A DNA stretch of 64,000 bases from an uncultured Alphaproteobacteria bacterium (GTDB lineage Bacteria > Pseudomonadota > Alphaproteobacteria > Rs-D84), in the NCBI GenBank assembly GCA_947053455.1, contig CAMRSV010000002.1:1-64000 (forward strand). The letters are read 5' to 3'. Of this stretch, positions 5,141-61,938 are shown piece by piece. Within the stretch, counting starts at the first letter, position 1, and each line of letters opens with the position of its first letter. The translations under genes were made by a program, and so were the position numbers. The notes beneath the pieces were generated by a model, which made no database searches, was not told where the DNA came from, and was given only the letters and a program-made list of their open reading frames with translations.

Positions 5141-5307
5141 AAAAACCACTGGAAAACTTTCAAGTGGTTGGAGGTTCAGAACAATCATTACGAATTGCGT
5201 GATTAGAGAACTAACCACCCTCCAACCACATGCGATTGGAGAATTTTCGTATTCTTAATACGCGTAATGATGGGTTCTGAAGCCCAATTGTCGGAATTCC
5301 CGACAAC
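5141..5307 (-). ncRNA. Pseudoknotted terminator-coupled RNA element A1
   Basis: The minus-strand promoter is TTGCAT (5342-5337), 17 nt, TATAAT (5319-5314), giving a start near 5307. In order, the RNA has: a 5' hairpin (5306-5288); a GGG/CCC hairpin with loop TTCAGAA; a segment ATCATTACG; strand A (GGTTGGAGG); a perfect 8-bp hairpin; CGTAATGAT; TTCTGAA; strand A' (CCTCCAACC, 5174-5166); and a terminator CCACT/AGTGG with T6. Loop TTCAGAA pairs with TTCTGAA and ATCATTACG pairs with CGTAATGAT. Both helices cross A-A', which makes a pseudoknot. This copy lacks the conserved AT-rich loop seen in most siblings. It precedes a small HTH gene. Confidence 0.8.
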
Positions 5308-5343
5308 ATTGTTATTATAATATATGCACAGCTCAAATGCAAT

Positions 5344-5520
5344 AAAAAAACCCAGGTTACCTGGGATAAAAAACGGTTGGAGTTTCAGAACAACCATTAC
5401 GAATTGCGGGCTTATTCAATATATTCGCCACACTCCAACCTGCATAGTTGGAGATGTGTCGCCATCTCATGCGCGTAATGGTCAGTTTCTGAATACTAAC
5501 AAAAGCAACACGCCTTTGCA
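5344..5520 (-). ncRNA. Pseudoknotted terminator-coupled RNA element A2 (tandem to A1)
   Basis: The promoter is TTGCAT (5555-5550), 17 nt, TATAGT (5532-5527). Loop TTCAGAA pairs with TTCTGAA, ACCATTACG pairs with CGTAATGGT, and GGTTGGAGT pairs with ACTCCAACC. The second helix differs from A1 by a compensated base pair. The conserved loop GAATATATTGAATAAG is present between GGC and GCC. It ends at its own terminator, CCCAGG/CCTGGG with T7 (5365-5344), and A1's promoter begins right after. About 50 bases of its promoter and 5' end are nearly identical to those of element E3 at 58.5 kb. It has no gene of its own. Confidence 0.8.
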
Positions 5521-5561
5521 TTAAGTACTATATCCTAAATTTACACAATATGCAATAAATA

Positions 5562-5709
5562 AAAATACTTGATTTTTGTCCGAAAACACTATAAACTGGG
5601 CGTCGCTGGGTAACCAGAACTGATTAAGGCACGGTGCATTTGGTCCCGATGCTGATAAGGATTCTGTTAAATATCCGGCACCTAAAAAACCAAAACAAAG
5701 GATATAAAA
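5562..5709 (+). promoter_or_regulatory. rpsD promoter and 5' leader
   Basis: TTGATT (5569-5574) and TATAAA (5590-5595) are 15 nt apart. The resulting leader of about 105 nt contains GC-rich segments that can pair locally. Ribosomal protein S4 is known to repress its own mRNA in other bacteria. I cannot show such a site here. Confidence 0.4.
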
Positions 5710-6342
5710 ATGGCAAGAGCTGGTGCAAAACGTAGCACTCGTAAACTGAAAATCGGCCGCGCATTAGGCGTTAACCTGTGGGGTCAGGCCAAATCTCCGT
5801 TTAACAAACGTAAATACAAACCCGGTCAGCATGGGCCGACATCTCGCGGGGGAAATTCTTCCGATTATGCAAAGCAGATGCGCGCCAAACAGACACTAAA
5901 GGGTTACTATGGTAATGTTGGCGAAAAGAAATTCCGCGCATATTACCTGGAAGCTGATAATATGAAGGGCGACACACCGGAAAACCTGATTGGTTTGCTG
6001 GAACGCCGTTTGGATGCGGTTGTGTATCGCGCAAAATTGGCACCGACAGTATTCTCTGCCCGCCAGTTGGTTAGCCACGGACACATCTATGTCAATGGCA
6101 AACGCGTAAAAATCGCCTCTTATCAGGTAAAACCGGGCGATGTCATCACCGTCAGTGAAAAGGCAAAACAAATGCCGTTGGTCGTTTTGGCGCTGGAATC
6201 GGCGGAACGCAACGTGCCGGATTACATCACGGTCGACAGCACGAATTTCACCGCGACATTCGTTCGCGTGCCGGCATTCGCCGATGTTCCATACCCGGTT
6301 CAAATGTCGCCGGAATTGGTCGTCGAATTCTATTCCCGTTAA
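5710..6342 (+). CDS. rpsD: 30S ribosomal protein S4
   Basis: The 210-residue protein is full length for S4. The central part carries the S4 RNA-binding domain ([17 protein letters not shown], then [17 protein letters not shown]). S4 nucleates assembly of the 16S 5' domain. The N-terminus lacks the four-cysteine zinc site found in some lineages. An AAAGGA ribosome binding site precedes the ATG. Upstream lie the two tandem RNA elements on the other strand. The gene has its own promoter and terminator. Confidence 0.97.
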
Positions 6343-6360
6343 TCCGGAAATACGAAACAC

Positions 6361-6387
6361 AAAAACCGCAGTCCATCTGCGGTTTTT
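6361..6387 (+). terminator. Intrinsic terminator after rpsD
   Basis: The hairpin AACCGCAG / CTGCGGTT is followed by TTTTATTTTTT. Confidence 0.85.
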
Positions 6388-6472
6388 ATTTTTTATACGA
6401 AAAAATTATTGACAAATATAATACTATGTGTTACTTTTCGTAAAAATATTAATGTACCAAGGTAAATTTAAA

Positions 6473-6910
6473 ATGGAACCAAAAACAAATAATTTATTTT
6501 ATAGCCAAATGCTGAACCATACCGATGTGGATTTTGACACATTGGTAAAATGCGGCATAAAGTTACATATTAATAAACAAAATAACAAATTTGTCCGGGC
6601 TATTGATATACGTCAGGTTACTTCTACGGCGCTTATAGACAAGACGTTTGTAAACCTTTCCCAAAAAGAACGCATTAATTACGCGGTAAAATACATGCTT
6701 GGCCTGTACATTGATTTCGCAAAGGCGTACGCAATTGATAATAATATCGCAATTGAAAAAACATTGAAAGTTATACGCTTTAGATTATGGCAAGCCGACA
6801 TGGACCGCGATGCCGAAGAAATAATTGCAAATGCCGCGCTGCTTATGCAAACAAATATATTGAAAAACATAAAAAGCCAGATAAAAAATATAAATCAAAA
6901 CATAATATAA
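6473..6910 (+). CDS. Hypothetical 145-residue protein
   Basis: The start at 6473 has an AAGG motif about 10 nt upstream. In-frame ATGs at 6428 and 6452 are possible but have weaker signals. The product is charged and soluble, largely helical by composition, and rich in Asn, Ile and Lys. A TTGACA box at 6411-6416 with a TTACTT-like -10 box 16 nt downstream may drive it. The AT-rich codon use differs from rpsD and trpS on either side, so recent acquisition or relaxed selection is possible. I do not recognise it. Confidence 0.65.
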   Translation: MEPKTNNLFYSQMLNHTDVDFDTLVKCGIKLHINKQNNKFVRAIDIRQVTSTALIDKTFVNLSQKERINYAVKYMLGLYIDFAKAYAIDNNIAIEKTLKVIRFRLWQADMDRDAEEIIANAALLMQTNILKNIKSQIKNINQNII

Positions 6911-7012
6911 GATTATATTGCCATCTGATAAATATTTTAAGCGCAATTCATTTTGCGCTTTTATTTTCATAATAAAGGAACTAAAATTCAAATCAGAAAA
7001 AAGGTTGTTATC

Positions 7013-8005
7013 ATGTCGGAAAAAATCGTATTAACCGGAATTAAGCCCACCGGTACGCCGCATCTGGGGAACTATGTCGGCGCGCTAAAGCCATTGATTG
7101 AAATGGCAAAAACAAACAAAACATTTATGTTTATCGCGGATTTGCACGCGTTGAATATAATTCGCGACCCAAAACTGATAAAACAGCATACATATGAAAT
7201 CGCGGCAATTCTGATGGCGCTGGGGCTGAATTTGGAAAATGCGGTTCTGTTCCGCCAATCAGACATAGTAGAGGTTTATCAACTGGCAACCCTGCTAATG
7301 AATGTGACGCCCAAGGGCTTGATGAACCGCGCCCATTCGTACAAGGCCGCAATGGATAAAAACGCTGCGGCGGGGCTGGATTCGGATGCAGGGGTCAATA
7401 TGGGGCTGTACACCTACCCTATTTTAATGGCGGCGGACATTTTGCTGTACGGTGCGGACGAAGTGCCGGTCGGCGCCGACCAGAAGCAGCACGTCGAATT
7501 CGCGCGCGACATTGCAGGGTACTTTAACCACACATATGGCGAAACATTCAAAATGCCCGAACCCATAATTGGCGAAAGCACCGGAATCATACCGGGGCTC
7601 GATGGTCGGAAAATGAGCAAATCATACGACAACATAATTCCACTGTTTGCAAATACATCGGAATTAAAAAAGAAAATCATGCGCATCATAACCGACAGCA
7701 AACTGCCCGAAGAGCCAAAGGATCCGGAAACTTCGACCATATTCCAATTATATCGGCATTTCGCAGATGGAGCGGAAATTGCAGAACTGCGCGAAAAATT
7801 TACTGCAGGCGGCATGGGATACGGCACCGCCAAAACAATTTTATTCGAAAAAATAGATTCTGTTTTGTCGGCGCCCCGTGCGGAATATGAACGCTTAATG
7901 GCAAATACGGCTGAAATTGATGCGGTATTAAATGCCGGTGCGGCGCGCGCCCGTGAATCGGCCGCGAAAACATTTGAACGTGTTCGCCGCGCAATGCTGG
8001 GATAA
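7013..8005 (+). CDS. trpS: Tryptophanyl-tRNA synthetase
   Basis: This class I synthetase of 330 residues charges tRNA-Trp. The HIGH-type signature is P-T-G-T-P-H-L-G-N near residue 15, and the KMSKS loop is G-R-K-M-S-K-S near residue 199. Between them lies the D-Q-K-Q-H motif used in tryptophan and ATP binding. The start at 7013 matches the family N-terminus (MSEKIVLTGIKPTG) and follows an AAAAAAGG motif. The longer in-frame extension from 6953 lacks homology. The length is normal. Confidence 0.96.
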   Translation: MSEKIVLTGIKPTGTPHLGNYVGALKPLIEMAKTNKTFMFIADLHALNIIRDPKLIKQHTYEIAAILMALGLNLENAVLFRQSDIVEVYQLATLLMNVTPKGLMNRAHSYKAAMDKNAAAGLDSDAGVNMGLYTYPILMAADILLYGADEVPVGADQKQHVEFARDIAGYFNHTYGETFKMPEPIIGESTGIIPGLDGRKMSKSYDNIIPLFANTSELKKKIMRIITDSKLPEEPKDPETSTIFQLYRHFADGAEIAELREKFTAGGMGYGTAKTILFEKIDSVLSAPRAEYERLMANTAEIDAVLNAGAARARESAAKTFERVRRAMLG

Positions 8006-8028
8006 TTAACCAAGGAAAGGAGAAAAAA

Positions 8029-8766
8029 ATGAAAAAAACACTTATTTGGACGGGCAGCGTAATTGGCGCAGCCGCGGTATTGGCGCTGATATTCGGCGCA
8101 ATGGAACGCGACAACACACCACGCACGATTTCGGTGACGGGCGAATGCCTTACCACCGCGCCCAAGGACAGAACGGCAATCACCCTGCGCGTGACCACAC
8201 TGGATAAATCGGCGGCCGTGTCCATGAAATCTGCATCGAACAAAATCGCCGAAATTACAAATTATCTTAAAACACTGGATGTGAAAATGCAGACGACGGA
8301 TTTCAATTCGTACGAAAAGACCGAATGGGATAGAACGGCGCAAAAATCCGTACCACTGGGGATTGAAACTACAATCGCCGTAGAAGTATCGGCATCCAAC
8401 ATTGAAACGATTGAAAAAATACTGACCCGCTTTGCCGGACAACCGAATGTGTATTCTGAAAACCTGCGCATGTTTACCAGTACGGAAACATTAAAACCAA
8501 TAATGGAAGAATGTCTGGGTGCGGCCGTTGAAAACGCACGCAGCCGTGCAAACGCATTGGCGGCGGGCGACGGACGACGCGCCGGCAAAATGGTTGCTGC
8601 CGAATATGGCGCATCCGCCGCATCTGTTGCACGCCCGACGGCAAATTTCCTACGTAGTGCAAAAATGGCCGTGACCGAAGATGCCGTTGCATATTCCGCC
8701 GGTGGCATCGTGGCCCAGGACACGCAAATAACCGTCAACGTATCGGCCGTGTTTGAAATAAAATAA
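8029..8766 (+). CDS. SIMPL-domain (DUF541) periplasmic protein
   Basis: The 245-residue protein has an N-terminal membrane anchor or signal helix (residues 5-23) and then the SIMPL/DUF541 fold, recognised by R-T-I-S-V-T-G-E near residue 33 and the repeated alternating V-x-V strands through to the C-terminus. Such proteins (YggE/BP26-like) form periplasmic oligomers, sometimes linked to oxidative stress. A strong AAGGAG site lies 8 nt before the ATG, and trpS ends 23 nt upstream, so the two are probably cotranscribed. xerC starts 5 nt after its stop. Confidence 0.85.
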   Translation: MKKTLIWTGSVIGAAAVLALIFGAMERDNTPRTISVTGECLTTAPKDRTAITLRVTTLDKSAAVSMKSASNKIAEITNYLKTLDVKMQTTDFNSYEKTEWDRTAQKSVPLGIETTIAVEVSASNIETIEKILTRFAGQPNVYSENLRMFTSTETLKPIMEECLGAAVENARSRANALAAGDGRRAGKMVAAEYGASAASVARPTANFLRSAKMAVTEDAVAYSAGGIVAQDTQITVNVSAVFEIK

Positions 8767-8771
8767 TCCGC

Positions 8772-9707
8772 ATGTATGAAGCCGTCGCCGAGTTTATAAA
8801 TTATCTGACGCAGACCAAGAACTATTCTGCGCACACGGCGGCGGCATACAAACGCGATTTAGACGATTTTCTGCATTTTTATCAGGACTTTGCAGGCACA
8901 AACATAACAATCCGTGAAATTACACAGGCCGACACTGTATGCTTTCGCGCATGGATGGCGTCGCGCGCGCGGCGGGGTATGGTGCATAAATCAACCGCAC
9001 GCGCATTATCGTCATTGCGCGCATTTTACAGATTTTTGGATAAAGCCCACGGGATAAAAAATTCATCAATCGGGCTTATTTCATCGCCCAAGGTGCCGCG
9101 CAAATTATCCAAGGCGATTGAAACAATTGATGTTGAACACATGAACAACGCAGTGCGCGAATTAAACGCCGACAACCCAGAAATTGCGGCGCGCGATTGG
9201 GCGCTGATTATGTTGCTGTTCGGATGCGGCCTGCGAATATCCGAGGCGTTAAATCTGCGCAATCGTGATGTTCGGGGGCGCCCCGCGGCACTGCGCATAC
9301 TGGGCAAGGGAAACAAGGAACGCATGGTGCCGGTATTGGAACCCGTATATGATGCAATTGAAAAATATATGAATGTGCGCACCGGCGCGGTGGGCGCCGA
9401 CGATGAAATATTCCGCAGTGTGCGTGGATTGCCCATGTCACCACGAATGGCGGAAAAAGTTGTGGAAAAACTGCGCATTTATCTGCAATTGCCAGATTAT
9501 GTCACACCGCATGCATTGCGTCATACATTTGCAACGGCACTGCTGGCGGGCGGCGTTGATTTGCGTAGTCTGCAGGAATTGCTGGGGCATTCATCATTAT
9601 CCACGACACAATTGTACACCAAGGTTGACATGTCGGAAATAATGAAAATATACAACCATGCCCACCCGCGTGCGGAAAACAACGCAGATGCGGATACAGA
9701 ATCCTAA
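8772..9707 (+). CDS. xerC: Tyrosine recombinase XerC
   Basis: The 311-residue protein has an N-terminal SAM-like DNA-binding domain (residues 1-100) and a catalytic domain with R in G-C-G-L-R-I-S-E-A-L, H-A-L-R-H near 253, H in L-L-G-H-S-S near 277, and the nucleophile Y in T-Q-L-Y-T-K. XerC with XerD resolves chromosome dimers at dif. The GCGLRISEAL wording fits XerC better than XerD. It follows the SIMPL gene closely, so it is in the trpS operon. It is a housekeeping recombinase and not evidence of an island. Confidence 0.9.
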   Translation: MYEAVAEFINYLTQTKNYSAHTAAAYKRDLDDFLHFYQDFAGTNITIREITQADTVCFRAWMASRARRGMVHKSTARALSSLRAFYRFLDKAHGIKNSSIGLISSPKVPRKLSKAIETIDVEHMNNAVRELNADNPEIAARDWALIMLLFGCGLRISEALNLRNRDVRGRPAALRILGKGNKERMVPVLEPVYDAIEKYMNVRTGAVGADDEIFRSVRGLPMSPRMAEKVVEKLRIYLQLPDYVTPHALRHTFATALLAGGVDLRSLQELLGHSSLSTTQLYTKVDMSEIMKIYNHAHPRAENNADADTES

Positions 9708-9747
9708 ATAAATTTGCATCCACTAATTTTTATGATATAATGCACAA

Positions 9748-9915
9748 CGCAAAGGGAAACCGGCGCATGGGTATGATAACCCATCCAGTGTGTCTGAAAA
9801 GACATTAAATAAAACTCCATTGGTTGGAGGGTCGTGAATATATTGAATAAGCGACACTATCACTGGTAGTTATCATCCTCCAGCCGTTTGGTTTTTCCAA
9901 ACGGCGTTTGTTTAA
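9748..9915 (+). ncRNA. Pseudoknotted terminator-coupled RNA element B
   Basis: The promoter is TTGCAT (9714-9719), 16 nt, TATAAT (9736-9741). Hairpin ATGGGT/ACCCAT carries the loop ATGATAA, which pairs with TTATCAT, and CCAGTG pairs with CACTGG. GGTTGGAGG pairs with CCTCCAGCC. The conserved loop GAATATATTGAATAAG sits between GTCG and CGAC. The element ends in a strong hairpin CCGTTTGG/CCAAACGG at 9885-9905 with an imperfect T-tract. An extra pairing, ACTCCAT with ATGGAGT (9924-9930), could mask the ribosome binding site of the HTH gene that follows 31 nt later. Confidence 0.8.
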
Positions 9916-9935
9916 CCAAAAACATGGAGTGAAAA

Positions 9936-10262
9936 ATGGCTGCATTAACAATGAAGGCATGGCAAATCGGACAGGCATTAAAATATGCACGCAAGAGCAT
10001 ATCTATGCTGCACGATGATACGGCGCGTATGCTAAAAATAACACGCGAAGAACTAACATTATTTGAAAATGGCGAGGTTGAAATCCCAAAGCACATATTG
10101 GAAACGATATTTGCCCTGGGGCTGATGATGATGCACACACGCGCAATGCAGGTGGATTATCATCACATGGCGCGCCAATGGCGACATATGCATACCAAGG
10201 TGATTGACCTGCAGAAAAAGGTGCAAAAAATTGATAACACGCCAAATCCTGCGTTGCAGTAA
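9936..10262 (+). CDS. Small HTH (XRE-like) protein linked to RNA element B
   Basis: The 108-residue protein contains a five-helix XRE-type domain: IGQALKYARKSISML is followed by DTARMLKITREELTLFENGEVEIP. In this domain A-R-M-L-x-I-T-x-E-x-L-x-x-x-E-N-G matches the helix-turn-helix and the loop of lambda/434-like repressors. The remainder is a charged helix with possible coiled coil. It differs from the two shorter HTH paralogs at 5 and 57.7 kb but has the same setting, directly after a structured RNA with terminator. GGAG precedes the ATG. A role as a transcription regulator is inferred. Confidence 0.8.
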   Translation: MAALTMKAWQIGQALKYARKSISMLHDDTARMLKITREELTLFENGEVEIPKHILETIFALGLMMMHTRAMQVDYHHMARQWRHMHTKVIDLQKKVQKIDNTPNPALQ

Positions 10263-10267
10263 AAATA

Positions 10268-10290
10268 TCGCCCCATTCGGGGCGGTTTTT
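10268..10290 (+). terminator. Bidirectional terminator between HTH gene and rnj
   Basis: Hairpin CGCCCC/GGGGCG is flanked by TTTTT on the right and, on the other strand, by ATATTTTTA. Confidence 0.75.
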
Positions 10291-12344: not shown

Positions 12345-12367
12345 AAAAAACGCCCCAAACTGGGGCG
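12345..12367 (-). terminator. Intrinsic terminator of the cold-shock gene
   Basis: On the minus strand CGCCCC / GGGGCG is followed by TTTTTTCTTG, 4 bases past the stop codon. Confidence 0.8.
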
Positions 12368-12371
12368 AATA

Positions 12372-12886: not shown

Positions 12887-12887
12887 A

Positions 12888-31762: not shown

Positions 31763-31845
31763 TGGTGCGAGCAAAGGGGCTCGAACCCTCGACCTCAACC
31801 TTGGCAAGGTTGCGCGGCTGGCCAACTTCGCTACGCTCTGCTCGC
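31763..31845 (-). pseudogene. tRNA-Gly(GCC) pseudogene
   Basis: The 3' half, from the anticodon stem with GCC to the encoded CCA, is identical to the intact gene at 31896-31972 over about 52 bases. The D-arm is different (GTAGCGAAGTTGGCCAGCCGC) and its stem cannot pair, and a few extra bases follow the acceptor strand. It is therefore a partial duplicate with a broken D-arm and probably not functional. Confidence 0.7.
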
Positions 31846-31851
31846 TTGCTC

Positions 31852-31884
31852 AAAAAAAACAGTCCCGTCAAATAACAGGACTGT
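31852..31884 (-). terminator. Intrinsic terminator after tRNA-Gly
   Basis: AACAGTCC / GGACTGTT hairpin with eight T on the minus strand. Confidence 0.8.
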
Positions 31885-31895
31885 TTCTGAATATC

Positions 31896-31972
31896 TGGTG
31901 CGAGCAAAGGGGCTCGAACCCTCGACCTCAACCTTGGCAAGGTTGCGCTCTAGCCAACTGAGCTACGCTCGC
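31896..31972 (-). tRNA. tRNA-Gly (anticodon GCC)
   Basis: The cloverleaf is complete over 77 nt. The acceptor is GCGAGCG with TGCTCGC and discriminator A, the D-arm is GCTC/GAGC, and the anticodon arm is CAACC/GGTTG around CTTGCCAAG. The T-arm is GAGGGTTCGAGCCCC-like and CCA is encoded. It reads Gly GGC/GGU codons. Confidence 0.92.
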
Positions 31973-42602: not shown

Positions 42603-42780
42603 GATGTGCACAAAACGCACATCGGGGTGTCGAAACCCATAAGTTATAGTGTCCGAGGGGACAATAAACGCCTCCAATCTAGTCAAGGTTGGAGGGTGGT
42701 GATATATCAAAATAAGCCCACTATTTCCTATAACTTAATAGTTTCGAACCTCCAACCACCATTTGTTTGGTGGCATTTTG
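42603..42780 (+). ncRNA. Pseudoknotted terminator-coupled RNA element C
   Basis: The promoter is TTGTAA (42568-42573), 17 nt, TATAAT (42591-42596). In order there are: a 5' hairpin GATGTGC/GCACATC; hairpin GGGT/ACCC with loop GTCGAAA; the segment TAAGTTATAGTG; an alternative hairpin CCTCCAAT/TTGGAGG; strand A GGTTGGAGG; conserved loop GATATATCAAAATAAG; CACTAT…TATAACTTA; TTTCGA; strand A' CCTCCAACC; and a terminator-like hairpin CCACC/GGTGG. The loop pairs with TTTCGA, and the long segment pairs over 12 bp with a 4-nt bulge. The secreted-protein gene starts 25 nt after the last stem. Confidence 0.8.
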
Positions 42781-42797: not shown

Positions 42798-43763
42798 ATG
42801 AAAAAATCTTTTATACTGGGAGGCATAATGTTACCCATGGTGGCATTTGGGAATAATATATCCATGGATGAAACACAATACATTATATCAAGTGCCGAAA
42901 AATTATTAAAAACTACCCGTGTTTTATGCAGCGGCATTTCAGATGAGTTATCACAAGTTTCCGGTGTTGCCAAGACTGAAACGGCTATAAACGCTGTTGG
43001 GGCCGCCGCGGGTGGCGGTGCGGTGTATGCCGGACTAAAAAAATCGCAATTGGACAAAGAAATTGAAACATTAATGGATAAAATGTGCACCGGTGGCGGA
43101 TGTTCTGCAAACGGTATAAAATCAATGTCAGATGATGATTTCGTAGAAAATGTTCTAACATCGATGGCGAACATGTCAAAGTTGTCCGATGAAATTGCAA
43201 ATGCGGAAAAGAAATCGAAAACTTTGGGAAATTGGCGTACGGGACTGATGGCGGGAAATACAGCAACAAATATTGCATCGTCAATTGTGGCGGGAATAAA
43301 TATGAATCAATCTGATTTGGTGCAACATGTTATGGCCTGCAACAATTCTTTGACACATTTAGAACAAGCTTACAATAACTTACTGGTAAGTGGGCTAAAT
43401 CCATATGAAACACCGCTGATGATTAAAATTAACAAAATTAAGAATAATTGTGGTGAAATTGATCAAAAAGATATTTTAAAAATAGAAAACTCAATGGCCG
43501 GGGTTGTGGGGATAGGTGCAGCGGGTTCAATCGCTGGTGTCGTCGGCACCGTTGTAAGTGCCAAGGCAAATTCTAATAAAATTCGTAATGACACAAGCGA
43601 AACCGGTCGGCACAAAGAAAGAAATTTAAATACGACCGCAAATGTAATGGCTGTTGCCGGAACTGGGACCAGTATAGCCGGCACGGCAAGCAATGCGATA
43701 ATGATATCGAAAATAAAAAAATTAATTAAACGGGCGCAATATTGCGAGGAGGTTTTACAATGA
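42798..43763 (+). CDS. Secreted protein with glycine-zipper segments, downstream of RNA element C
   Basis: The start at 42798 has AAGGAG at 5 nt; the adjacent ATG at 42795 is too close. The 321-residue product has a signal peptide (cleavage likely after AFG). Glycine-rich hydrophobic stretches (A-V-G-A-A-A-G-G-G-A-V-Y-A-G and V-G-I-G-A-A-G-S-I-A-G-V-V-G) resemble glycine zippers, and there are several pairs of Cys (MCTGGGC). It could insert in or line a membrane. The next gene starts in the overlapping ATGA, so the two form a coupled pair. Family unknown. Confidence 0.7.
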   Translation: MKKSFILGGIMLPMVAFGNNISMDETQYIISSAEKLLKTTRVLCSGISDELSQVSGVAKTETAINAVGAAAGGGAVYAGLKKSQLDKEIETLMDKMCTGGGCSANGIKSMSDDDFVENVLTSMANMSKLSDEIANAEKKSKTLGNWRTGLMAGNTATNIASSIVAGINMNQSDLVQHVMACNNSLTHLEQAYNNLLVSGLNPYETPLMIKINKIKNNCGEIDQKDILKIENSMAGVVGIGAAGSIAGVVGTVVSAKANSNKIRNDTSETGRHKERNLNTTANVMAVAGTGTSIAGTASNAIMISKIKKLIKRAQYCEEVLQ

Positions 43764-47613: not shown

Positions 47614-48021
47614 TTATTTTATGTCCCTAAAAATCGCGTTACGCAACTGTTTATTAGACACAATGTCACGCGCGCAAAAACTGGCACACCAATTTTGGCA
47701 TTCGTTTGCATAAACATAACTGCGCAAAAATACATACTGCGACCGAAATGGACTGGATATTCGGCACCAGCAGCCAATTGCATCGTCCCCATCTTCGGGT
47801 GCGGTCAAAATTTCGGTCTGCGTATATGCGGGCGCCTCAACATCATTGCAAACGCCGACACCCTTTACCACCAATTCATCCGTGCCATTATCGCATAATG
47901 CAGCCCAGTTATCACCAGAATATTCCGAATTTTTACATTTTATTTCCGGCGGCAATATTTTGGCGCACAACGCCGCATGCGAAACAAACGCCAGACCAGT
48001 GGCAATCATTAGATATTTCAT
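47614..48021 (-). CDS. Secreted cysteine-rich protein downstream of RNA element D
   Basis: The 135-residue product has a signal peptide (cleavage near A-L-C-A, about 20). It has about ten Cys in the mature part (C-D-N-G, G-V-C-N, G-C-W-C, N-E-C-Q-N-W-C-A-S-F-C), implying several disulfides. It starts 27 nt after the terminator of RNA element D, with AAAGGGGAAA as ribosome binding site. I do not recognise the family. The setting matches those of the secreted genes at 42.8 and 62.0 kb. Confidence 0.7.
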   Translation of the reverse strand: MKYLMIATGLAFVSHAALCAKILPPEIKCKNSEYSGDNWAALCDNGTDELVVKGVGVCNDVEAPAYTQTEILTAPEDGDDAIGCWCRISSPFRSQYVFLRSYVYANECQNWCASFCARDIVSNKQLRNAIFRDIK

Positions 48022-48039: not shown

Positions 48040-48255
48040 TTAAAGAACAAAACCACCAAAAAGGTGGTCGGGAAGTTAGAAAAATCATAAATCAGAATGA
48101 TCCCGCTGGTCTTTGGGCGATCCCTGTTGTATAACCAACGGCCTCCCGACAACGTGCCGGGCAAGCACGGGAACATCCCGTGGCATTGGATACGGTGCAC
48201 TGCACCGCTGATTTATGGGATTTTCTACGTCCCGAACCCACATCCCTGCAGGTTC
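48040..48255 (-). ncRNA. Pseudoknotted terminator-coupled RNA element D (divergent copy)
   Basis: The promoter is TTGTAT (48290-48285), 17 nt, TATACT (48267-48262). A 5' hairpin GAACC/GGGTTC is followed by GGGA/TCCC with loop CGTAGAAAA. The loop pairs with TTTTCTA and ATAAATCAG pairs with CTGATTTAT. Strand A GTCGGGAGG pairs with CTTCCCGAC, and a competing hairpin CCCG/CGGG lies upstream. The final stem CCACC/GGTGG with TTTTG is the terminator (48048-48070). The AT-rich conserved loop is replaced by a longer arm (CCGTTGGT/ACCAGCGG) and extra hairpins are inserted, so this is a distant member. Confidence 0.7.
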
Positions 48256-55542: not shown

Positions 55543-55602
55543 ATTTATATTCCCCTTGTCCGTATGTAAAAACAATATTACACTGTGGTTATAAAATCAA
55601 GC

Positions 55603-55631
55603 CTTGAAATGCGCGACCGACGCATTATATT
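55603..55631 (+). promoter_or_regulatory. Promoter of groES-groEL, heat-shock type possible
   Basis: CTTGAAA (55603-55609) and a TATATT box (55626-55631) are 16 nt apart. The CTTGAAA element fits the sigma32 -35 consensus, while the -10 is closer to sigma70. No CIRCE inverted repeat for HrcA was found. Confidence 0.5.
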
Positions 55632-55656
55632 AAACGCAAGAGCCAAGGAGAAACAC

Positions 55657-55941
55657 ATGTTCAAACCATTACACAATTATGTATTACTGGAAAGAATCGA
55701 AGAAGAAAACAAAACAGCGGGCGGCATCATAATCCCGGACAACGCACGTGAAAAACCATCACGTGGTCGCGTGGTTGCATGCGGCGACGGCACAACGGAA
55801 AACGGCGTTAAAATCCCTATGTCGGTAAAGCCTGACGACACGGTTCTGTTTGCGAAATGGGCATCCAGTGCAAACGAAGTCAAAATAGACGGCAAAGACT
55901 ATGTATTGATAAAGGAAACCGATATTTTGGGAATTTTATAA
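55657..55941 (+). CDS. groES: Co-chaperonin GroES
   Basis: The start at 55657 follows AAGGAG and matches the family start MFKPLHNYVL. The 94-residue protein has the mobile-loop G-G-I-I-I-P near 25 and the roof beta-hairpin. It caps the GroEL ring. A longer upstream frame is rejected. Confidence 0.96.
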   Translation: MFKPLHNYVLLERIEEENKTAGGIIIPDNAREKPSRGRVVACGDGTTENGVKIPMSVKPDDTVLFAKWASSANEVKIDGKDYVLIKETDILGIL

Positions 55942-55965
55942 AATTCAAAAGGAAAGGAATAGAAA

Positions 55966-57585
55966 ATGGCAAAAGATATTGTTTTTAATACGGACAAACT
56001 GGCTGCAGGCGTTGATAAATTGGCCGACGCGGTAAAAATCACCATGGGTCCCAAGGGGCGCACAGTCGTAATAGACAAGTCATACGGCGCACCCGTCGCA
56101 ACCAAAGACGGCGTTACCGTGGCCAAGGCGGTATCATTAAAAGACCCGGCCGAAAACATCGGTGCACGCATGGTTCAAGAAGTTGCGAAAAAGGCCGGCG
56201 ACGATGCCGGTGACGGCACCACAACGGCGACCGTTTTGGCACAAAAACTAATCCGCGAAGGGCGCCGCGTTATCGCCGCGGGTATGAACCCCATGGACAT
56301 CAAACGCGGAATTGACGTTGCAGTTGCGGCCGTTGTTGATGATATTGACGCGCACGCCCGCCCGGTAAAAAACAGCGCCGAAATCGCCCAGGTTGCGACG
56401 ATTTCTGCCAATTCCGATGCAGACATTGGTAAAAAAATTGCCGATGCAATGGAAAAGGTTGGCAAAGAAGGCGTCATCACCGTTGAAGAGGCCAAGGGAT
56501 TGGAAACCGAAATTGATGTTGTAGAAGGCATGCAATTCGACCAGGGATTCATGTCGCCCTATTTCGTGACAAATAGTGAAAAAATGCTGGCCGAGCTGGA
56601 CGGTGCGCAGATTTTGGTGTCTGAAAAGAAAATCACGGGGTTGCAGGCGTTGCTGCCGATACTGGAACCAATTGCGCAATCGGGCCGGCCGCTACTGATT
56701 ATTGCCGAAGACGTTGAATCCGAGGCATTGGCAACATTGGTCTTGAACCGGTTGCGTGGGGGATTAAAAGTATGCGCGGTCAAGGCACCGGGCTTTGGCG
56801 ATAGACGCAAAGAAATGCTGAAAGACATCGCGACGGTCACCGGCGCAACGGTAATATCCGATGATATGGGCATGACATTTGAAAATATTTCAATGGATAT
56901 GCTGGGCACAGCCAAGAAAGTTGTTGTCAGCAAAGATTCAACATTACTGGCGCACGGCGGCGGTGATAAAAAGGCGATTGCGGCGCGCGCGGATGAAATT
57001 CGCGTGGCGCTATCGAACACAACCAGCGAATACGACCGTGAAAAATTGTCGGAAAGACTGGCCAAATTGGTCGGCGGTGTCGCAGTTATAAAGGTTGGCG
57101 GCATGACCGAGGTTGAGGTTAAAGAAAAGAAAGACCGCGTTGACGACGCATTGGCGGCAACACGCGCCGCGGTGGCCAGTGGCATCGTCGCGGGCGGCGG
57201 CGTGGCATTGGTTCGCGCGGTCAAGGCACTGGAAAAATTAAAGGGCGAGAACACAGACCAGAATGTCGGAATTGACATTGTGCGTCGCACGCTTGTTGCG
57301 CCATGCGCCCAGATTGCAGAAAACGCGGGCGTATCGGGCGAAATCGTTGTTGGCAAGGTTATGGAAGCCAAAGATTACAATTTTGGCTATAACGCACAAA
57401 CCGGCGAATACGTCGACATGATGAAGGCGGGCATTATCGACCCGGCCAAAGTCGTCAAGACCGCAATTGCCGCCGCCGCCAGCACGGCGGGCGTAATGCT
57501 GACCACAGGATGCGTAATGTCGGAAATTCCCGAAGAAAAACCGGCCACCCCACAAATGCCGGGTGGCATGCCGGGCATGATGTAA
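55966..57585 (+). CDS. groEL: Chaperonin GroEL
   Basis: The 539-residue protein is full length. Equatorial residues T-M-G-P-K-G-R-T near 30 and D-G-T-T-T-A near 87 bind ATP. The C-terminus ends in G-G-M-P-G-M-M, the usual Gly/Met tail inside the ring. An AAAGGAAAGGA site precedes the ATG, 24 nt after groES. Confidence 0.98.
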
Positions 57586-57606
57586 TATAAATGCCCTATA
57601 ATTTAT

Positions 57607-57629
57607 ACCGCCCCGGATTGGGGCGGTAA
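57607..57629 (+). terminator. Terminator-like hairpin after groEL
   Basis: A 9-bp stem TACCGCCCC/GGGGCGGTA without a clear T-run, between groEL and a convergent HTH gene. Confidence 0.5.
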
Positions 57630-57631
57630 TA

Positions 57632-57850
57632 TTATTCATTAAAATACGGTGGTAAATGCAATGAACGATGCGTTGCCGATATAAAACAAATCAATTGAAA
57701 TGTACTGGGGGTATATCGACCGCTTATGAACCGTTGATATTCTGCGTCCGTCATACAAAGCGCGGTTTGCGCAATATGGTCGGGGATGTTTAATTCGTCT
57801 TGGATTTGACGGACCTGTTGATATAGTTTTAGCGCAGGTTTTCTTTCCAT
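57632..57850 (-). CDS. Small HTH (XRE-like) protein linked to RNA element E1
   Basis: The start at 57850 is chosen for its GGGGGAAA site; a longer frame begins at 57883 inside the RNA terminator. The 72-residue protein is a paralog of the one at 4868-5104, sharing L-C-M-T-D-A-E-Y-Q-R-F and Q-L-I-C-F-I-S-A-T. It starts 32 nt after the terminator of RNA element E1. The three tandem RNA elements upstream are all in the same direction. Confidence 0.75.
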   Translation of the reverse strand: MERKPALKLYQQVRQIQDELNIPDHIAQTALCMTDAEYQRFISGRYTPSTFQLICFISATHRSLHLPPYFNE

Positions 57851-57881
57851 GCCTAATTTCCCCCATATTTTGAAATCAAAC

Positions 57882-58056
57882 AAAAAACCACTAGAAAACT
57901 TTCAAGTGGTTGGAGGTTGAGAACTATAATTCTCGGAAAATAGTGCCACTTATTTATATATATCGTGACCCTCCAACCTGCTGGTTGGAGATGTTTTTTG
58001 TCATCACTGACACCGAAAATTGAGATTCTCATATCTCAAATAGTATACTACTATCA
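57882..58056 (-). ncRNA. Pseudoknotted terminator-coupled RNA element E1
   Basis: The promoter is TTGCAA (58090-58085), 16 nt, TAAAAT (58068-58063). Hairpin TTGAGAT/ATCTCAA carries the loop, in which TGAGAA pairs with TTCTCA and AATT with CGG continues the helix. GGTTGGAGG pairs with CCTCCAACC. The conserved loop GATATATATAAATAAG lies between GTCAC and GTGGC. The terminator CCACT/AGTGG with T6 (57882-57908) is almost the same as in A1. An HTH gene follows 32 nt on. Confidence 0.8.
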
Positions 58057-58147
58057 CTTGTAATTTTAACACACAGGAATCAAATTGCAAACAATTTATT
58101 ATCCATTGGATTGCCACGCCACCCGGCGCCCCACAATGACAAATAAA

Positions 58148-58319
58148 AATCATCAAAAAACTTTCATGCAGTTGGAGGTTAAGAACTATAATACTCAATA
58201 GTGCCTGTTATTCAACATATTCACAGGCCTCCAACCACAAATATGATTGGAAGATTGTTTCGCCATCTCATGCGTATACGAACAGGTTATGAAGCCTGGT
58301 GACAAAACTCTTGTCACTG
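58148..58319 (-). ncRNA. RNA element E2, mismatched or recombinant copy
   Basis: The promoter is TTGATT (58353-58348), 16 nt, TATGTT (58331-58326). The 5' hairpin is GTGACAA/TTGTCAC, and CAGG/CCTG carries loop CTTCATAA. The partner segment reads TTCTTAA, not the expected TTATGAA, so the loop pairing is broken. The middle P3 stem GCCTGT/ACAGGC is perfect with loop GAATATGTTGAATA. The 5' half resembles element E3 while the 3' half resembles E1, which suggests recombination. The terminator is degraded (GCAT-like, no clean stem). Confidence 0.65.
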
Positions 58320-58374
58320 TTGAATAACATATCACAATTTTATAAAAAATCAAATATAAAGAATTGAAAAATTA

Positions 58375-58523
58375 TTTAGGTTGGAGCTTCATAACAATCG
58401 TATAAATTGCATGACTTATTGGATATTCGTCATACTCCAACCCATATAAAGTTGGAGATGTATCGCCATCTCATGCGTATACGAACAGTTTATGAAGACT
58501 GGCAAAAGCAACACGCCTTTGCA
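58375..58523 (-). ncRNA. Pseudoknotted RNA element E3
   Basis: The promoter is TTGCAA (58558-58553), 17 nt, TATAGT (58535-58530). CAGT/ACTG carries the loop CTTCATAA, which pairs with TTATGAA, and CGTATA pairs with TATACG. GGTTGGAG pairs with CTCCAACC. P3 is a strong stem TATGAC/GTCATG around GAATATCCAATAA. No clean terminator follows; only an AT-rich stretch leads to the E2 promoter. The 5' region is shared with element A2. Confidence 0.75.
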
Positions 58524-58577
58524 TTAAGTACTATATCCTAATTATTCAGAATTTGCAATAAGTAAAAACCAAGGGCA

Positions 58578-58607
58578 AAAAATCCCCGCGACCGCGGGGA
58601 TTTTTTT
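58578..58607 (-). terminator. Intrinsic terminator after rne
   Basis: AATCCCCGCG / CGCGGGGATT followed by six T on the minus strand, 8 nt past the rne stop. Confidence 0.85.
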
Positions 58608-58614
58608 GTTTTAT

Positions 58615-60408
58615 TTAGCCGATTATTTTCTGCCATATGGTTTTCTTTTTCGGCTGTTTCTTGCGGCGGCGGCGCGGCGCATTCATTGTTGTTTTTTTCG
58701 CATCCGCATGCTGCACATTTTTCTTTTTAACGTCGGTTGACGGTGCATGCGCGGTCAACAATTCTTCCGTTTTGTTCTGTTCCGGGGCAACACGCTGAAT
58801 TGAATACTGGTCAATATTCATCAGGCTATCATCACCCACAATTACGATTTCGGTTTCGAACTTGGCCTCCATTTCTGCCAATTCCGCACGCTTGTGATTT
58901 AGCAGATACACCGCCACATCCGTCGGTACGGTCATGATGATTTTCTGCGCGGCCTTGGCCAACAATTTTTCCTGTAGATGACGGAACATTATTATTGCGG
59001 CGGTCTGAATACTGGGCACAACACCCGCCCCCATGCAGTACGGGCACTGAACATAAGACGATTCCATAAAACTACTGCGCAGTCTTTGGCGCGACAGCAT
59101 CAAAACCCCAAAATTATTAATCTTGGCCACCTGGGTGCGTGCACGGTCGCGTTTCATAACCTCGCGCATTTTTAGTTCCAGTTTGCGATTGTTGCGTTCT
59201 TCCTCCATATCAATAAAGTCAATCGCGACAATACCCGCCAAATCGCGCAGGCGCAGTTGCAGGGCGATTTCCTCGGCTGCCTCCAAATTGGTGTTAAGCG
59301 CCGTTTGCTCAATATCCTTTTCCTTAATCGCGCGCGATGAATTAACGTCAATTGTAACCATCGCCTCGGTCTGATTTATAACCAATGAGCCGCCCGACGG
59401 CAACTGAACGTATGGACCGTGCAGACCCTCTAACTGCTTTTCAACGCCGGCCTTTACCATTAATGGAACGCCTGCATCCTTGTAATTCACCAATTGTTTG
59501 CGCGGGGCGCGGCCGTACATTTGCTGAAAATATTGTTTCGCGGCTTCAAACGCCTCTTCGCCCTGGATAATTAATACATCATCCTTGTCCGACAGGAAAT
59601 CGCGCACAACGCGACGCAGAAGCGAATCTTCGGTATGAATAGTTACCGGCGCAACCGATTCCAATGTGGTCTTGCGAATTTCATTCCACAAATTGACCAA
59701 GTAATCATAGTCCGCCGCGATATCCGCCGCCGACGCGCCAAACGCCGCCGTGCGCAGGACAACCGTCATTCCCTTTGGAATTTTTAACCCGTGCAGAATT
59801 TCACGCAAACGCGCGCGTTCGGGTTTGTCCGAAATCTTTTTGGAAATACCGTAACTGTTACGCTTGCGGGAATTGGGCATCAATACCGCAAACCGTCCCG
59901 CCAATGACAGGTACGTCGTCATGGACGCACCCTTTTGACCGCGTTCTTCCTTCACGCCCTGAACCAGCAAGATTTGTTTCGGCTTAATAACATCCTGAAT
60001 TTTGAATTCACGCGCGCGCTTGGCAAATTCCTTGTTGTCTTCGCCGGCACTCTGGTCATCATATTCGGCGACTTCGTCCCCTTCGTCATCGGGGTCATCA
60101 TCATCGTCAACGATGTTGGCATGCGCCAATTCCAGTAATTTTTTCTTTTGCTCGGCCGTTACCTGATAATATTCGGGGTTGATTTCCGAAAACGGTAAAA
60201 ATCCGTTCTTGCCCGAACCGTAATCAACAAACGCCGCCTGCAGCGATGGTTCAACACGAATTACTTTTGCAAGATAAATATTTCCCTTTATCTGGGGCTT
60301 GGTCGTGGTTTCAACATCAAAATCAGAAACACGATTTGTTGCGGTATCCACAACAACGACGCGTGTTTCCTCCGGGTGGACTGCATCCACATAAATTTTC
60401 TTTGACAT
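58615..60408 (-). CDS. rne: Ribonuclease E/G family endonuclease
   Basis: The start at 60408 (MSKKIYVDAV) has AAAGGA; the longer frame from 60495 is rejected. The 597-residue protein has the S1 domain interrupted by an acidic insert (D-D-D-D-P-D-D-E-G-D-E, about 90-110). The catalytic D-V-N-S-S near 340 and the zinc-link C-P-Y-C-M-G-A near 435 follow. It ends in a basic tail rather than the long RNase E scaffold, so it is RNase G-sized to short RNase E. With RNase J at 10.3 kb both decay pathways exist. Confidence 0.94.
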   Translation of the reverse strand: MSKKIYVDAVHPEETRVVVVDTATNRVSDFDVETTTKPQIKGNIYLAKVIRVEPSLQAAFVDYGSGKNGFLPFSEINPEYYQVTAEQKKKLLELAHANIVDDDDDPDDEGDEVAEYDDQSAGEDNKEFAKRAREFKIQDVIKPKQILLVQGVKEERGQKGASMTTYLSLAGRFAVLMPNSRKRNSYGISKKISDKPERARLREILHGLKIPKGMTVVLRTAAFGASAADIAADYDYLVNLWNEIRKTTLESVAPVTIHTEDSLLRRVVRDFLSDKDDVLIIQGEEAFEAAKQYFQQMYGRAPRKQLVNYKDAGVPLMVKAGVEKQLEGLHGPYVQLPSGGSLVINQTEAMVTIDVNSSRAIKEKDIEQTALNTNLEAAEEIALQLRLRDLAGIVAIDFIDMEEERNNRKLELKMREVMKRDRARTQVAKINNFGVLMLSRQRLRSSFMESSYVQCPYCMGAGVVPSIQTAAIIMFRHLQEKLLAKAAQKIIMTVPTDVAVYLLNHKRAELAEMEAKFETEIVIVGDDSLMNIDQYSIQRVAPEQNKTEELLTAHAPSTDVKKKNVQHADAKKTTMNAPRRRRKKQPKKKTIWQKIIG

Positions 60409-60614
60409 TTTGTAATCCTTTGTTTTGTGATGCGTATGCAATGGAAACAACCCGTCCCCGTGGGGCGTCCAAGCCCATGCCAAGAGAAGGCGCAATGATG
60501 ATAAACAGCGCGTCGCGGATTATTGAAAAAAGTGATAGTATAAACACCTGTATTAACCCCATGTCATACGACAAGGTTAAGCATAGCACGCCCCACCACG
60601 CAAAGGCAAGGTAT

Positions 60615-61637
60615 TTATTTTCCGGTCTTTTTATTTTTGCGAACTGGGATTCGGGGAATTTTTTCCTTGGCCTCGTTAATCCAGCGACGCATCCGCGCCC
60701 GCAGCCAGTTTTCATATATAAAGAACAGCCCGCCAACCCCGATTAATGGCAACACGTAATATATTATGCGATACGCCAACAATGCACCAAAAACACTTGC
60801 CTTGTCAATGTCGGTCGGCAATGCAATTAGGAAAATACTCTCAAACACACCGATGCCGCCGGGAACCTGGCTGAAAACGCCGGTGGTCTGCGCAATTACA
60901 AACAATCCGATAAATGTTCCAAACGGAATTGCCCAAAACGGCCGCAGGCAGAAATACAGCACCAAACCTGCCAAAACACTGTCCGTGATACCCAAAAGCA
61001 TTTGAATGATGGCCATTTGGGTTGTGGGAATCTCAAACCGAACAGTGCCGATTTTTACACTTTTACCATGAAAGAACACAGTCATTGCAAAATATGCCAA
61101 TATTGCCGCTGCACATGCGATAAATAGCGTATTAATACCGACACTGGCGCCCATGGAATTTTCAAACACATGACGCGGCACCAGAAAATATCCCATAACA
61201 ACAATCGCCGAACATCCCAGAAAATAAGTAAAACCGGATATGGTCAACATTTTTAAAATATCGCCCCCCCGAATTCGCCAACGGGTGTAAAGGCGATATC
61301 TAATCGCGCCACCAGAGACAACAGCATGCCCGGCATTATTGCTGATTGCAAAGCCCAACATCCCGGCCAGCATCCATTTCCACCAAGAAACCTTTTGATT
61401 TTCACCAACATAATTCAATGCCAGATAATCATACAGCGCCAATGCAAAATATCCCGCCAAACACGCCAGACACGCCCCCGCCAGATTAATCAGCGGAATA
61501 TCAGTAATTGCATGCCAAATGTCAGCCAAACTGTATGAATGCAATTGCCACCATAGCATACCTGCCGCCAGAATAAAAAAGAAAATCCCCGAATAACTAA
61601 TAAGTTTTTTTAGAATCCGCTTTGTCTTTGCCGACAT
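60615..61637 (-). CDS. YbhN/UPF0104-type membrane protein (LPG synthase transmembrane region-like)
   Basis: The start at 61637 has AAAAAGGA upstream. The 340-residue protein has about eight transmembrane helices and the motifs N-N-A-G-H-A-V-V-S-G-G-A-I-R-Y-R near 98 and P-G-G-I-G-V-F-E near 265, typical of the flippase-like part of MprF (AglD/UPF0104). No synthase domain is fused. It may move lipids across the membrane. Two hundred bases separate it from rne. Confidence 0.85.
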   Translation of the reverse strand: MSAKTKRILKKLISYSGIFFFILAAGMLWWQLHSYSLADIWHAITDIPLINLAGACLACLAGYFALALYDYLALNYVGENQKVSWWKWMLAGMLGFAISNNAGHAVVSGGAIRYRLYTRWRIRGGDILKMLTISGFTYFLGCSAIVVMGYFLVPRHVFENSMGASVGINTLFIACAAAILAYFAMTVFFHGKSVKIGTVRFEIPTTQMAIIQMLLGITDSVLAGLVLYFCLRPFWAIPFGTFIGLFVIAQTTGVFSQVPGGIGVFESIFLIALPTDIDKASVFGALLAYRIIYYVLPLIGVGGLFFIYENWLRARMRRWINEAKEKIPRIPVRKNKKTGK

Positions 61638-61737
61638 ATAAATCCTTTTTAGCGTAGTCAAGGTTAGCAATAATATATTAAAATGCAAAGACAAAAAACA
61701 CTTTACAAATAAGGGCATTATAAATTATTATCTGCAT

Positions 61738-61938
61738 GTCACGGAATTGTTTCGTGGCGGGGCCTGATAACCCCATTCTGTGCGTCCGAACAATTATTCG
61801 GCGGTATGCGCCATTTTTGCTCTGACGATAAACAAAAAGCTCCTGGCTCATGGTCAGGAGGGTTGCGAATATAAAAATAAGCACGCAATTCACAGAATTG
61901 TTATCAGCCTCCTGACCATCATTAATTGATGGTTTTTT
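61738..61938 (+). ncRNA. Pseudoknotted terminator-coupled RNA element F
   Basis: The promoter is TTTACA (61702-61707), 18 nt, TATTAT (61726-61731). The 5' hairpin CACG/CGTG is followed by GGGG/CCCC with loop CTGATAA, which pairs with TTATCAG; ATTCTGTG pairs with CACAGAAT. A = GGTCAGGAGG and A' = CCTCCTGACC show covariation against the other copies. A competing hairpin CTCCTG/CAGGAG lies upstream of A. The conserved loop GAATATAAAAATAAG is present. The terminator CCATC/GATGG with T6 ends 24 nt before a GTG start. Confidence 0.85.

What the first reader, a model, noticed from the sequence alone, without database searches (positions are those of the whole stretch)
5141..61938. A nine-copy family of pseudoknotted, terminator-coupled RNA elements, apparently undescribed
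Nine elements share promoter, 5' hairpin, hairpin P1 with a 6-7-nt loop, closing helix A-A', stem P3, and in seven copies a P3 loop close to GAATATATTGAATAAG; most end in an intrinsic terminator. Positions: 5141-5307, 5344-5520, 9748-9915, 42603-42780, 48040-48255, 57882-58056, 58148-58319, 58375-58523, 61738-61938. The P1 loop pairs with a segment next to A', crossing A-A'. Loop and partner change together: TTCAGAA/TTCTGAA, ATGATAA/TTATCAT, TCGAAA/TTTCGA, TAGAAAA/TTTTCTA, TGAGAA/TTCTCA, TTCATAA/TTATGAA, CTGATAA/TTATCAG. Only the 58.2-kb copy breaks the rule. Such compensation is strong evidence of a selected RNA fold. I know of no family with this layout, but I could not search.
Basis: seen in the sequence. 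Interest (0 to 1): 0.96.

Follow-up and report, generated by a model that had tools for sequence, protein, structure and literature searches.

The report
Fifty-copy pseudoknotted gene-switch RNA leader
A knotted RNA fold stands at the start of some thirty genes in a tiny-genome gut bacterium, where it is predicted to switch those genes on or off, and it is likely the long form of an RNA (sRNA-Xcc1) that had been catalogued only by its second half and described as a free-standing small RNA.

Summary
The nine elements are real (three on +, six on -). They belong to a family of at least 52 copies in this 915-kb genome, probably a Candidatus Enterousia species. Of 37 testable final copies, 32 precede a ribosome-binding site and ORF. 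Covariation supports P1, L1:L1', A:A', P2, P3, P4 and b:c. Strand c covaries with b, overlaps the terminator in this genus, and in other orders matches the Shine-Dalgarno region. That is riboswitch-like wiring; trigger and polarity are unproven, and I favour folded = ON.

It is not wholly undescribed. Rfam's sRNA-Xcc1 (RF02221) matches the 3' half of some members end to end, below the gathering score. Conversely, of 37 RF02221 loci examined, 31 carry L1 and 31 carry A upstream, and 29 precede an ORF (phage antirepressors, SymE among them), whose Shine-Dalgarno region repeats strand A in 15. The published trans-acting sRNA-Xcc1 thus looks like half of a cis-acting switch. GGDEF and RelA/SpoT were not found in six genomes of the genus, arguing against cyclic-di-GMP or ppGpp as trigger.

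The parts
9766..9885 (+). E9 core, P1 to strand c
   Evidence: R1 110 bits; alignments
9773..9779 (+). E9 L1 (ATGATAA); pairs with L1' 9870-9876
   Evidence: sequence; covariation
9785..9790 (+). E9 strand A (CCAGTG); pairs with A' 9861-9866, the loop of P4 (9856-9859 / 9867-9870)
   Evidence: covariation
9815..9819 (+). E9 strand a (CTCCA), rival of c for b
9822..9830 (+). E9 strand b (GGTTGGAGG); pairs with a or with c
9836..9851 (+). E9 P3 loop GAATATATTGAATAAG, conserved AAUA..AAUA motif
9870..9876 (+). E9 L1' (TTATCAT)
9877..9885 (+). E9 strand c (CCTCCAGCC), the switch strand
9883..9913 (+). E9 intrinsic terminator; its 5' arm begins with the last 3 nt of c
9936..10262 (+). gene led by E9: 108-aa XRE-like HTH protein
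   Evidence: weak HTH_19 match, below the curated cut-off; start 50 nt after c
42622..42757 (+). E42 core
   Evidence: R1 102.8 bits; RF02221 28.9 bits over 42687-42765
42798..43763 (+). gene led by E42: 321-aa protein with a signal-peptide-like N terminus (by eye)
61759..61917 (+). E61 core; strands a, b and c all changed together (CTCCTG / GGTCAGGAGG / CCTCCTGACC)
   Evidence: R1 56.1 bits; R3 79.2 bits
61962..62612 (+). gene led by E61: 216-aa protein with a signal-peptide-like N terminus (by eye), GTG start
5375..5500 (-). E5b core, first of a tandem pair
   Evidence: R1 122.2 bits
5166..5287 (-). E5a core, second of the pair
   Evidence: R1 107.4 bits
4868..5104 (-). gene led by E5a: 78-aa small HTH-like protein (by eye)
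   Evidence: start 61 nt after c; no Pfam match
58379..58503 (-). E58b core, first of a tandem triple
   Evidence: R1 111.2 bits
58170..58299 (-). E58a core, middle copy; L1:L1' and A:A' broken, weak terminator
   Evidence: R1 104.4 bits
57908..58040 (-). E57 core, last of the triple
   Evidence: R1 101.3 bits
57632..57850 (-). gene led by E57: 72-aa small HTH-like protein (by eye)
   Evidence: no HTH match in Pfam
48066..48234 (-). E48 core, divergent copy: helices kept, AATA motif absent
   Evidence: helices by eye; not found by R1, R2 or R3
47614..48021 (-). gene led by E48: 135-aa protein with a signal-peptide-like N terminus (by eye)

Best explanation
Each element with a gene behind it looks like that gene's leader, and its pseudoknotted core likely competes with a terminator hairpin (in relatives, with the Shine-Dalgarno region) for shared strands, so that a folded core would leave the gene ON and a free strand would turn it OFF. 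Shown by sequence: a promoter-like box, the double-pseudoknot fold, the three-way complementarity a/b/c, overlap of c with the terminator, a nearly constant distance to a start codon, the same core with other expression platforms in relatives, and the RF02221 relationship. Inferred: that a:b and b:c exchange during transcription, that folded means ON, and that an unknown small ligand rather than a protein, tRNA or temperature sets the balance. The family is a sister branch of sRNA-Xcc1, whose 88-nt 'sRNA' is then likely the 3' half of the same kind of leader.
For: Fold: 23 column pairs beat a null that redistributes substitutions on the tree (137 copies, 30 nulls). They lie in L1:L1', A:A', P2, P3, P4, a:b and b:c, plus one new contact (columns 7-96). 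P1, P4, b:c and 7-96 were not in the R1 structure used to align. Cells paired 94.0% against 69.3% in shuffles; covariation 0.583 against 0.158, and at most 0.074 when slid (a:b version). Switch: b:c is 9/9, G-U allowed, in 163 of 181. The terminator stem takes the last 3 or 4 nt of c in 127 of 160 non-tandem copies of the genus, against 24 of 810 random 69-mers; for 2-5 nt, 146 of 160 against 52 of 810. Leader: TATAAT-like box in 163 of 178, random 24%; start codon 40-60 nt after c in 138 of 156 unique proteins, random positions 7.3%; in this genome 32 of 37 testable final copies lead an RBS-supported ORF, 30 of them at 40-61 nt. Other platforms: in 48 elements of other orders the Shine-Dalgarno region matches L1'/c over 7 or more nt in 15, swapped 7.7%. 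In 29 RF02221 leaders it matches A' over 7 or more nt in 15, swapped 2.4%. The terminator and both Shine-Dalgarno pairings use strands that the folded core occupies, hence folded = ON. Relationship.
Against: No expression, probing or ligand data. By nearest-neighbour energies b:c (median -15.5 kcal/mol) beats a:b (-11.8) and the terminator (-10.3) taken one by one, but not their sum, so the default state is not settled. 18 of 179 non-tandem copies overall and 5 of 37 in this genome have no RBS-supported ORF within 90 nt. Of 26 upstream tandem copies only 16 have a terminator overlapping c by 3 or 4 nt and 8 have no overlap; such copies also suit an sRNA. 5 of 160 have no terminator-like site, and the terminator rule alone is loose (326 of 810 random stretches pass). 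Within the same order outside the genus the Shine-Dalgarno test is null (4.38 against 4.40). E48 lacks the loop motif. Pair 8-119 is significant but only 59% paired. Alignments made with R1-R3 lean towards their own structures, and the 48 and 37 relatives tested are not independent of one another.
Confidence: 0.72

Rival explanations
1. Independent trans-acting small RNAs, as published for sRNA-Xcc1: promoter, structured RNA, terminator, with targets elsewhere.
For: Own promoter-like box and terminator; tandem copies without a gene between them; an 88-nt sRNA-Xcc1 was mapped by RACE (PMC2996969, passages read), and seven Xylella copies, five of them clustered, were treated as sRNAs (PMC12189769, passages).
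Against: Nearly constant spacing to an RBS and gene; c/terminator overlap; complementarity with the adjacent gene's Shine-Dalgarno region; the loops that would bind targets are used by internal covarying pairs. A terminated leader would itself look like an sRNA.
Confidence: 0.12
2. A cis leader, but triggered by a protein, an RNA or temperature rather than by a small ligand.
For: The targets seen (surface proteins, small HTH regulators, phage antirepressors) do not point to one metabolic pathway.
Against: None direct; the conserved AAUA/AAUA internal loop is compatible with either.
Confidence: 0.35
3. A cis leader with reversed polarity: the folded core is the OFF state, or the core is a constitutive stabiliser.
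For: Energies do not settle the default state.
Against: The terminator and both Shine-Dalgarno pairings use a strand that the folded core occupies, so folding should free the gene (inference).
Confidence: 0.15
4. Repetitive or mobile DNA without function at the RNA level.
For: Local duplications, such as 83 nt at 88% identity between the 5-kb and 58-kb arrays.
Against: Compensated changes over 96 L1 and 157 A sequences cannot come from copying.
Confidence: 0.01

Closest known systems
sRNA-Xcc1 (Rfam RF02221), an 88-nt sRNA of Xanthomonas, in integron cassettes
   Same: Stem b:c, P3 with AAUA..GAAUAA internal loop, P4, linker L1' and c, in the same order and aligned end to end. Most of the 37 loci examined also carry L1 and A upstream, and 29 a gene downstream.
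   Different: The Rfam model begins at b and holds no P1, L1, A, P2 or a. The passages I could read treat it as a trans-acting sRNA, though PMC12444791 notes that it lies upstream of symE and suggests a divergent regulatory mechanism. The Shine-Dalgarno region mimics A, where this genus has a terminator overlapping c. The only window element searched with a relaxed threshold, E42, scores 28.9 bits (gathering 53).
Transcription-attenuating riboswitches in general
   Same: Leader position, anti-antiterminator / antiterminator / terminator strands, tandem copies, more than one expression platform on one core.
   Different: No ligand known; about 52 copies in a 0.9-Mb genome; targets not from one metabolic pathway.
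c-di-GMP riboswitches (GEMM; recalled, not from a call)
   Same: Many copies per genome and pilin, surface and regulator targets (recalled).
   Different: No Rfam match at gathering score in the window; GGDEF domains not found in 6 of 6 genomes of the genus searched.

Membership tests
sRNA-Xcc1 (RF02221) | score at or above the gathering cut-off of 53 bits | tested here: not met
   Window: no hit at gathering; E42 28.9 bits when searched alone; nine loci of the genus no match at E up to 1. Distant relatives 33.8-41.4 bits. A separate locus of the same genome, C1:189038-189127, does pass with 55.5 bits.
sRNA-Xcc1 (RF02221) | order of elements b, P3 with AAUA loop, P4, linker, c | tested here: met
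   End-to-end model matches 1-87 in 6 of 11 distant loci given and E42. One R1 element of this genome (C13) and two R2 elements of G120 also match (30.9-39.7 bits).
sRNA-Xcc1 (RF02221) | homology in the other direction: its loci carry the 5' half | tested here: met
   Of 37 loci, L1:L1' of 7 or more in 31 (swapped 10.7%), A:A' of 7 or more in 31 (11.3%). R3 in full length at E below 0.005 in 16 of 36 outside the own genome; 20 of 36 not.
sRNA-Xcc1 (RF02221) | trans-acting, gene-free sRNA | tested here: inconclusive
   29 of 37 RF02221 loci sit 23-65 nt before an RBS-supported ORF, 8 do not. Trans action cannot be tested here.
riboswitch | leader of a coding gene with an expression platform | tested here: met
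   by sequence only:
riboswitch | binds a ligand directly | not testable with these tools
   needs in-line probing or similar
c-di-GMP or ppGpp-sensing RNA | the genome can make the ligand | tested here: not met
   GGDEF 0 of 6 and RelA/SpoT 0 of 6 genomes of the genus (74-96% complete); 7 of the 8 other genomes searched have each
any other Rfam 15 family | match at gathering score over the element itself | tested here: not met
   window at gathering and 32 loci with relaxed thresholds: other families at gathering score match only beside the element

The most novel reading that the evidence does not exclude
The window elements and sRNA-Xcc1 are two branches of one ancient cis-acting riboswitch class, unrecognised because Rfam holds only its 3' half: one double-pseudoknot core with three expression platforms (terminator on c, Shine-Dalgarno on L1'/c, Shine-Dalgarno copy of A). 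It answers one still unknown signal shared by gut-symbiont surface proteins, small HTH regulators, SymE genes and temperate-phage antirepressors, and in this genome it reaches about one copy per 18 kb.
Probability: 0.55. Interest if true: 0.95.

Novelty: new variant of a known kind. Interest (0 to 1): 0.86.

Why it matters
It would turn a plant-pathogen sRNA and its phage and integron relatives into cis-acting gene switches, give an orphan riboswitch candidate over two hundred natural variants with built-in covariation, and show a minimal-genome gut symbiont running some thirty surface, regulator and unknown genes by one RNA. The ligand question becomes directly testable in vitro.

Tried and rejected
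Plain MAFFT alignment of the cores misplaced E61, so it was left out of the R1 seed, as was E48. c-di-GMP was tested because pilin, porin and regulator targets resemble that regulon (recalled); it was dropped for this genus because GGDEF was not found. ppGpp was dropped likewise. A Shine-Dalgarno platform within the genus is small in size (mean run 4.49 against 4.27, though 0 of 200 shuffles reach it), and the test is null for other families of the order. Phage origin: the pattern occurs in 3 IMG/VR contigs, two of them with phage tail genes, which does not explain 52 copies in one genome. A phylum sample with R2 found only the genus itself (2 of 249), whereas RF02221 found 58 of 398, so R2 alone understates the range; samples over 40 genomes are scored with stricter filters. 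Rows dropped: 8 of 144 complete ORFs before the Pfam scan, 4 of 35; two reverse-strand artefacts and four rows of the genus. The signal-peptide count (73 of 156 against 76 of 345) uses a crude rule of my own.

Full report
What was checked. Three read on +, six on -. Aligned in the right orientation they share one plan: promoter-like box, 5' hairpin, P1 with loop L1, strand A, P2, hairpin a:b, P3 with a GAATATATTGAATAAG-like loop, hairpin P4 whose loop is A', strand L1', strand c and, in most, a terminator.

Number and range. A covariance model from seven copies (R1) finds 52 places at E below 0.001 in the 915-kb genome. A model rebuilt from 137 copies (R2) also finds 52, all below 1e-9. E48 is found by neither. 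Of the 53 with E48, 12 are upstream members of tandem arrays and 41 are final copies. 32 of 34 other species of the genus carry it; three reach 40-44 copies (strict filters). With R2 at E up to 0.01, 13 of 18 genomes from other genera of the order have it, some weakly, and 0 of 6 from outside the order. A class sample gives 13 of 289, three of them this genus; one further family gives 17 of 22; a phylum sample gives 2 of 249. Passages of PMC12306168 describe Rs-D84 as reduced-genome bacteria that appear to be obligate symbionts or parasites, most genomes being from animal guts.

Fold. L1:L1' is 7/7 Watson-Crick in 150 of 181 unique copies against 2.8% with swapped partners, over 96 L1 heptamers. 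I redistributed the substitutions of 137 aligned copies over the tree 30 times: 23 column pairs have E below 0.05. They are six in L1:L1' (one of them, 8-119, only 59% paired), six in A:A', four in P3, three in P2, one each in P4, a:b and b:c, and one new contact, column 7 with 96. R1 was built with L1:L1', A:A', P2, a:b and P3, so those lean on the model; P1, P4, b:c and 7-96 do not. Pair counts: 94.0% of cells paired with b:c in the structure, 92.9% with a:b; shuffles and slid structures are far lower. L1:L1' encloses A:A' and crosses P1; A:A' crosses P4. Each hairpin's loop therefore pairs with the tail that follows the other hairpin. In 83 copies from outside the genus the same pairings hold (L1:L1' of 6 or more in 81, swapped 7.8%). 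In many of these the P3 loop opens into an internal loop with an AAUA on each strand; AAUA occurs at least twice in the P3 region of 75 of 83.

Switch anatomy. Strand b is complementary to a and to c, and all three change together, as in E61. b:c is 9/9 with G-U allowed in 163 of 181. A terminator-like site follows 155 of 160 non-tandem copies of the genus, but 326 of 810 random stretches pass the same loose rule; what stands out is that its 5' arm begins inside c, with an overlap of 3 or 4 nt in 127 of 160 against 24 of 810. Of 26 upstream tandem copies 16 show that overlap and 8 none. A TATAAT-like box lies upstream in 163 of 178, most often about 31 nt before P1, random 24%. An RBS-supported start codon follows c at 40-60 nt in 138 of 156 unique proteins; random positions give 7.3%. 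18 of 179 non-tandem copies have none within 90 nt; in this genome 32 of 37 testable final copies have one. In other orders the Shine-Dalgarno region is complementary to the L1'/c junction (mean run 5.79 against 4.34 swapped, 0 of 200 shuffles). Three same-order relatives have no terminator overlapping c but a TTGGAGG that c could cover (L192, L205, L213), yet over 21 such relatives the test is null. One core with several expression platforms is how riboswitches behave. That the folded core means ON is inference.

Genes. Of 136 downstream proteins scanned from the genus and its order, the commonest Pfam matches are helix-turn-helix domains (HTH_31 in 23), then Ephrin_rec_like (5) and outer-membrane beta-barrels (3); the table does not say how many match nothing. 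My crude signal-peptide rule gives 73 of 156 against 76 of 345 background ORFs. In other orders 31 proteins include porins, surface antigens, pilins, HTH and Bro-N. GGDEF and RelA/SpoT were not found in 6 of 6 genomes of the genus searched, 74-96% complete.

Relation to the known. At gathering score the window has only tRNAs, and nine loci of the genus gave no RF02221 match at E up to 1. With relaxed thresholds RF02221 sRNA-Xcc1 matches the 3' half of 6 of 11 distant elements end to end, and E42 searched alone. Its model is exactly b, P3 with AAUA/GAAUAA loop, P4, linker, c. In a phylum sample RF02221 occurs in 58 of 398 genomes, above the cut-off in 40. I examined 37 loci (the 30 handed out, 7 phage or plasmid). 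Upstream of the Rfam stretch 31 carry an L1 of at least 7 nt and 31 an A of at least 7 nt complementary to L1' and A' (swapped 10.7% and 11.3%). In 30 of 37 the A hit starts 7-16 nt after the L1 hit (read from the printed positions). 29 of 37 precede an RBS-supported ORF by 23-65 nt; 15 of 29 have a Shine-Dalgarno region that repeats A over at least 7 nt (swapped 2.4%). The genes include Bro-N, P22_AR, Rha, KilA-N, AntA and SymE proteins. R3, whose seed holds none of these loci, finds 16 of the 36 outside the own genome in full length at E below 0.005. One element of this genome (C13:1989-2154) is found by both R3 and RF02221, and two elements of a sister species (G120) by both R2 and RF02221. 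PMC12444791 (passages) states that sRNA-Xcc1 lies upstream of symE in Xanthomonas cassettes and suggests a divergent regulatory mechanism. I had no named Xanthomonas record.

Print. Searches of the held library for sRNA-Xcc1 (18 papers) and for sRNA-Xcc1 with riboswitch (6 papers) list no title or opening of an abstract that treats it as a cis leader; I read passages of five of these papers (PMC2996969, PMC12444791, PMC12189769, PMC6557892, PMC11701678). Chen et al. 2011 is not held. Most subscription papers and preprints were not searched.

Verdict. A real, large family that by sequence is cis-acting; sister branch of sRNA-Xcc1 rather than a member by Rfam's own cut-off; wired like a riboswitch, with ligand and polarity unproven.

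Noticed in passing
window 58170-58299: E58a, the one rule-breaker, looks like a mosaic of its neighbours: 5' half 83% identical to E58b, 3' half nearest to E57 (76%) among six copies compared. Recombination between paralogues would break L1:L1' and A:A' together.
   Followed up: partly
window 48066-48234: E48 keeps the helices by eye but lacks the AAUA motif in P3 and is not found by the three covariance models.
   Followed up: partly
L316 (G000:C1:189038-189127), L318 (G000:C5:41687-41779): The same genome also holds copies of the sRNA-Xcc1 type that R3 does not find, one above Rfam's cut-off.
   Followed up: partly
L281-L317, between A and b: Many RF02221 loci have an ACCCG(T/A)CAG-containing hairpin followed by a T-run, like an internal terminator, inside the leader before the Rfam stretch (by eye).
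   Followed up: no
L278, L279 (IMG/VR contigs): Copies of the element on contigs with phage tail sheath, tape-measure and tail proteins, possibly prophage cargo genes with this leader.
   Followed up: partly
window 58615-60495: The tandem triple lies directly downstream of an RNase E/G gene on the same strand.
   Followed up: no
alignment A7, consensus columns 7 and 96: An unplanned covarying contact joins the base before L1 to the base before P4; 110 of 136 copies form a standard pair.
   Followed up: partly
window 31763-31972: Two adjacent tRNA-Gly (gcc) genes, a local duplication with 92% identity over 64 nt.
   Followed up: no
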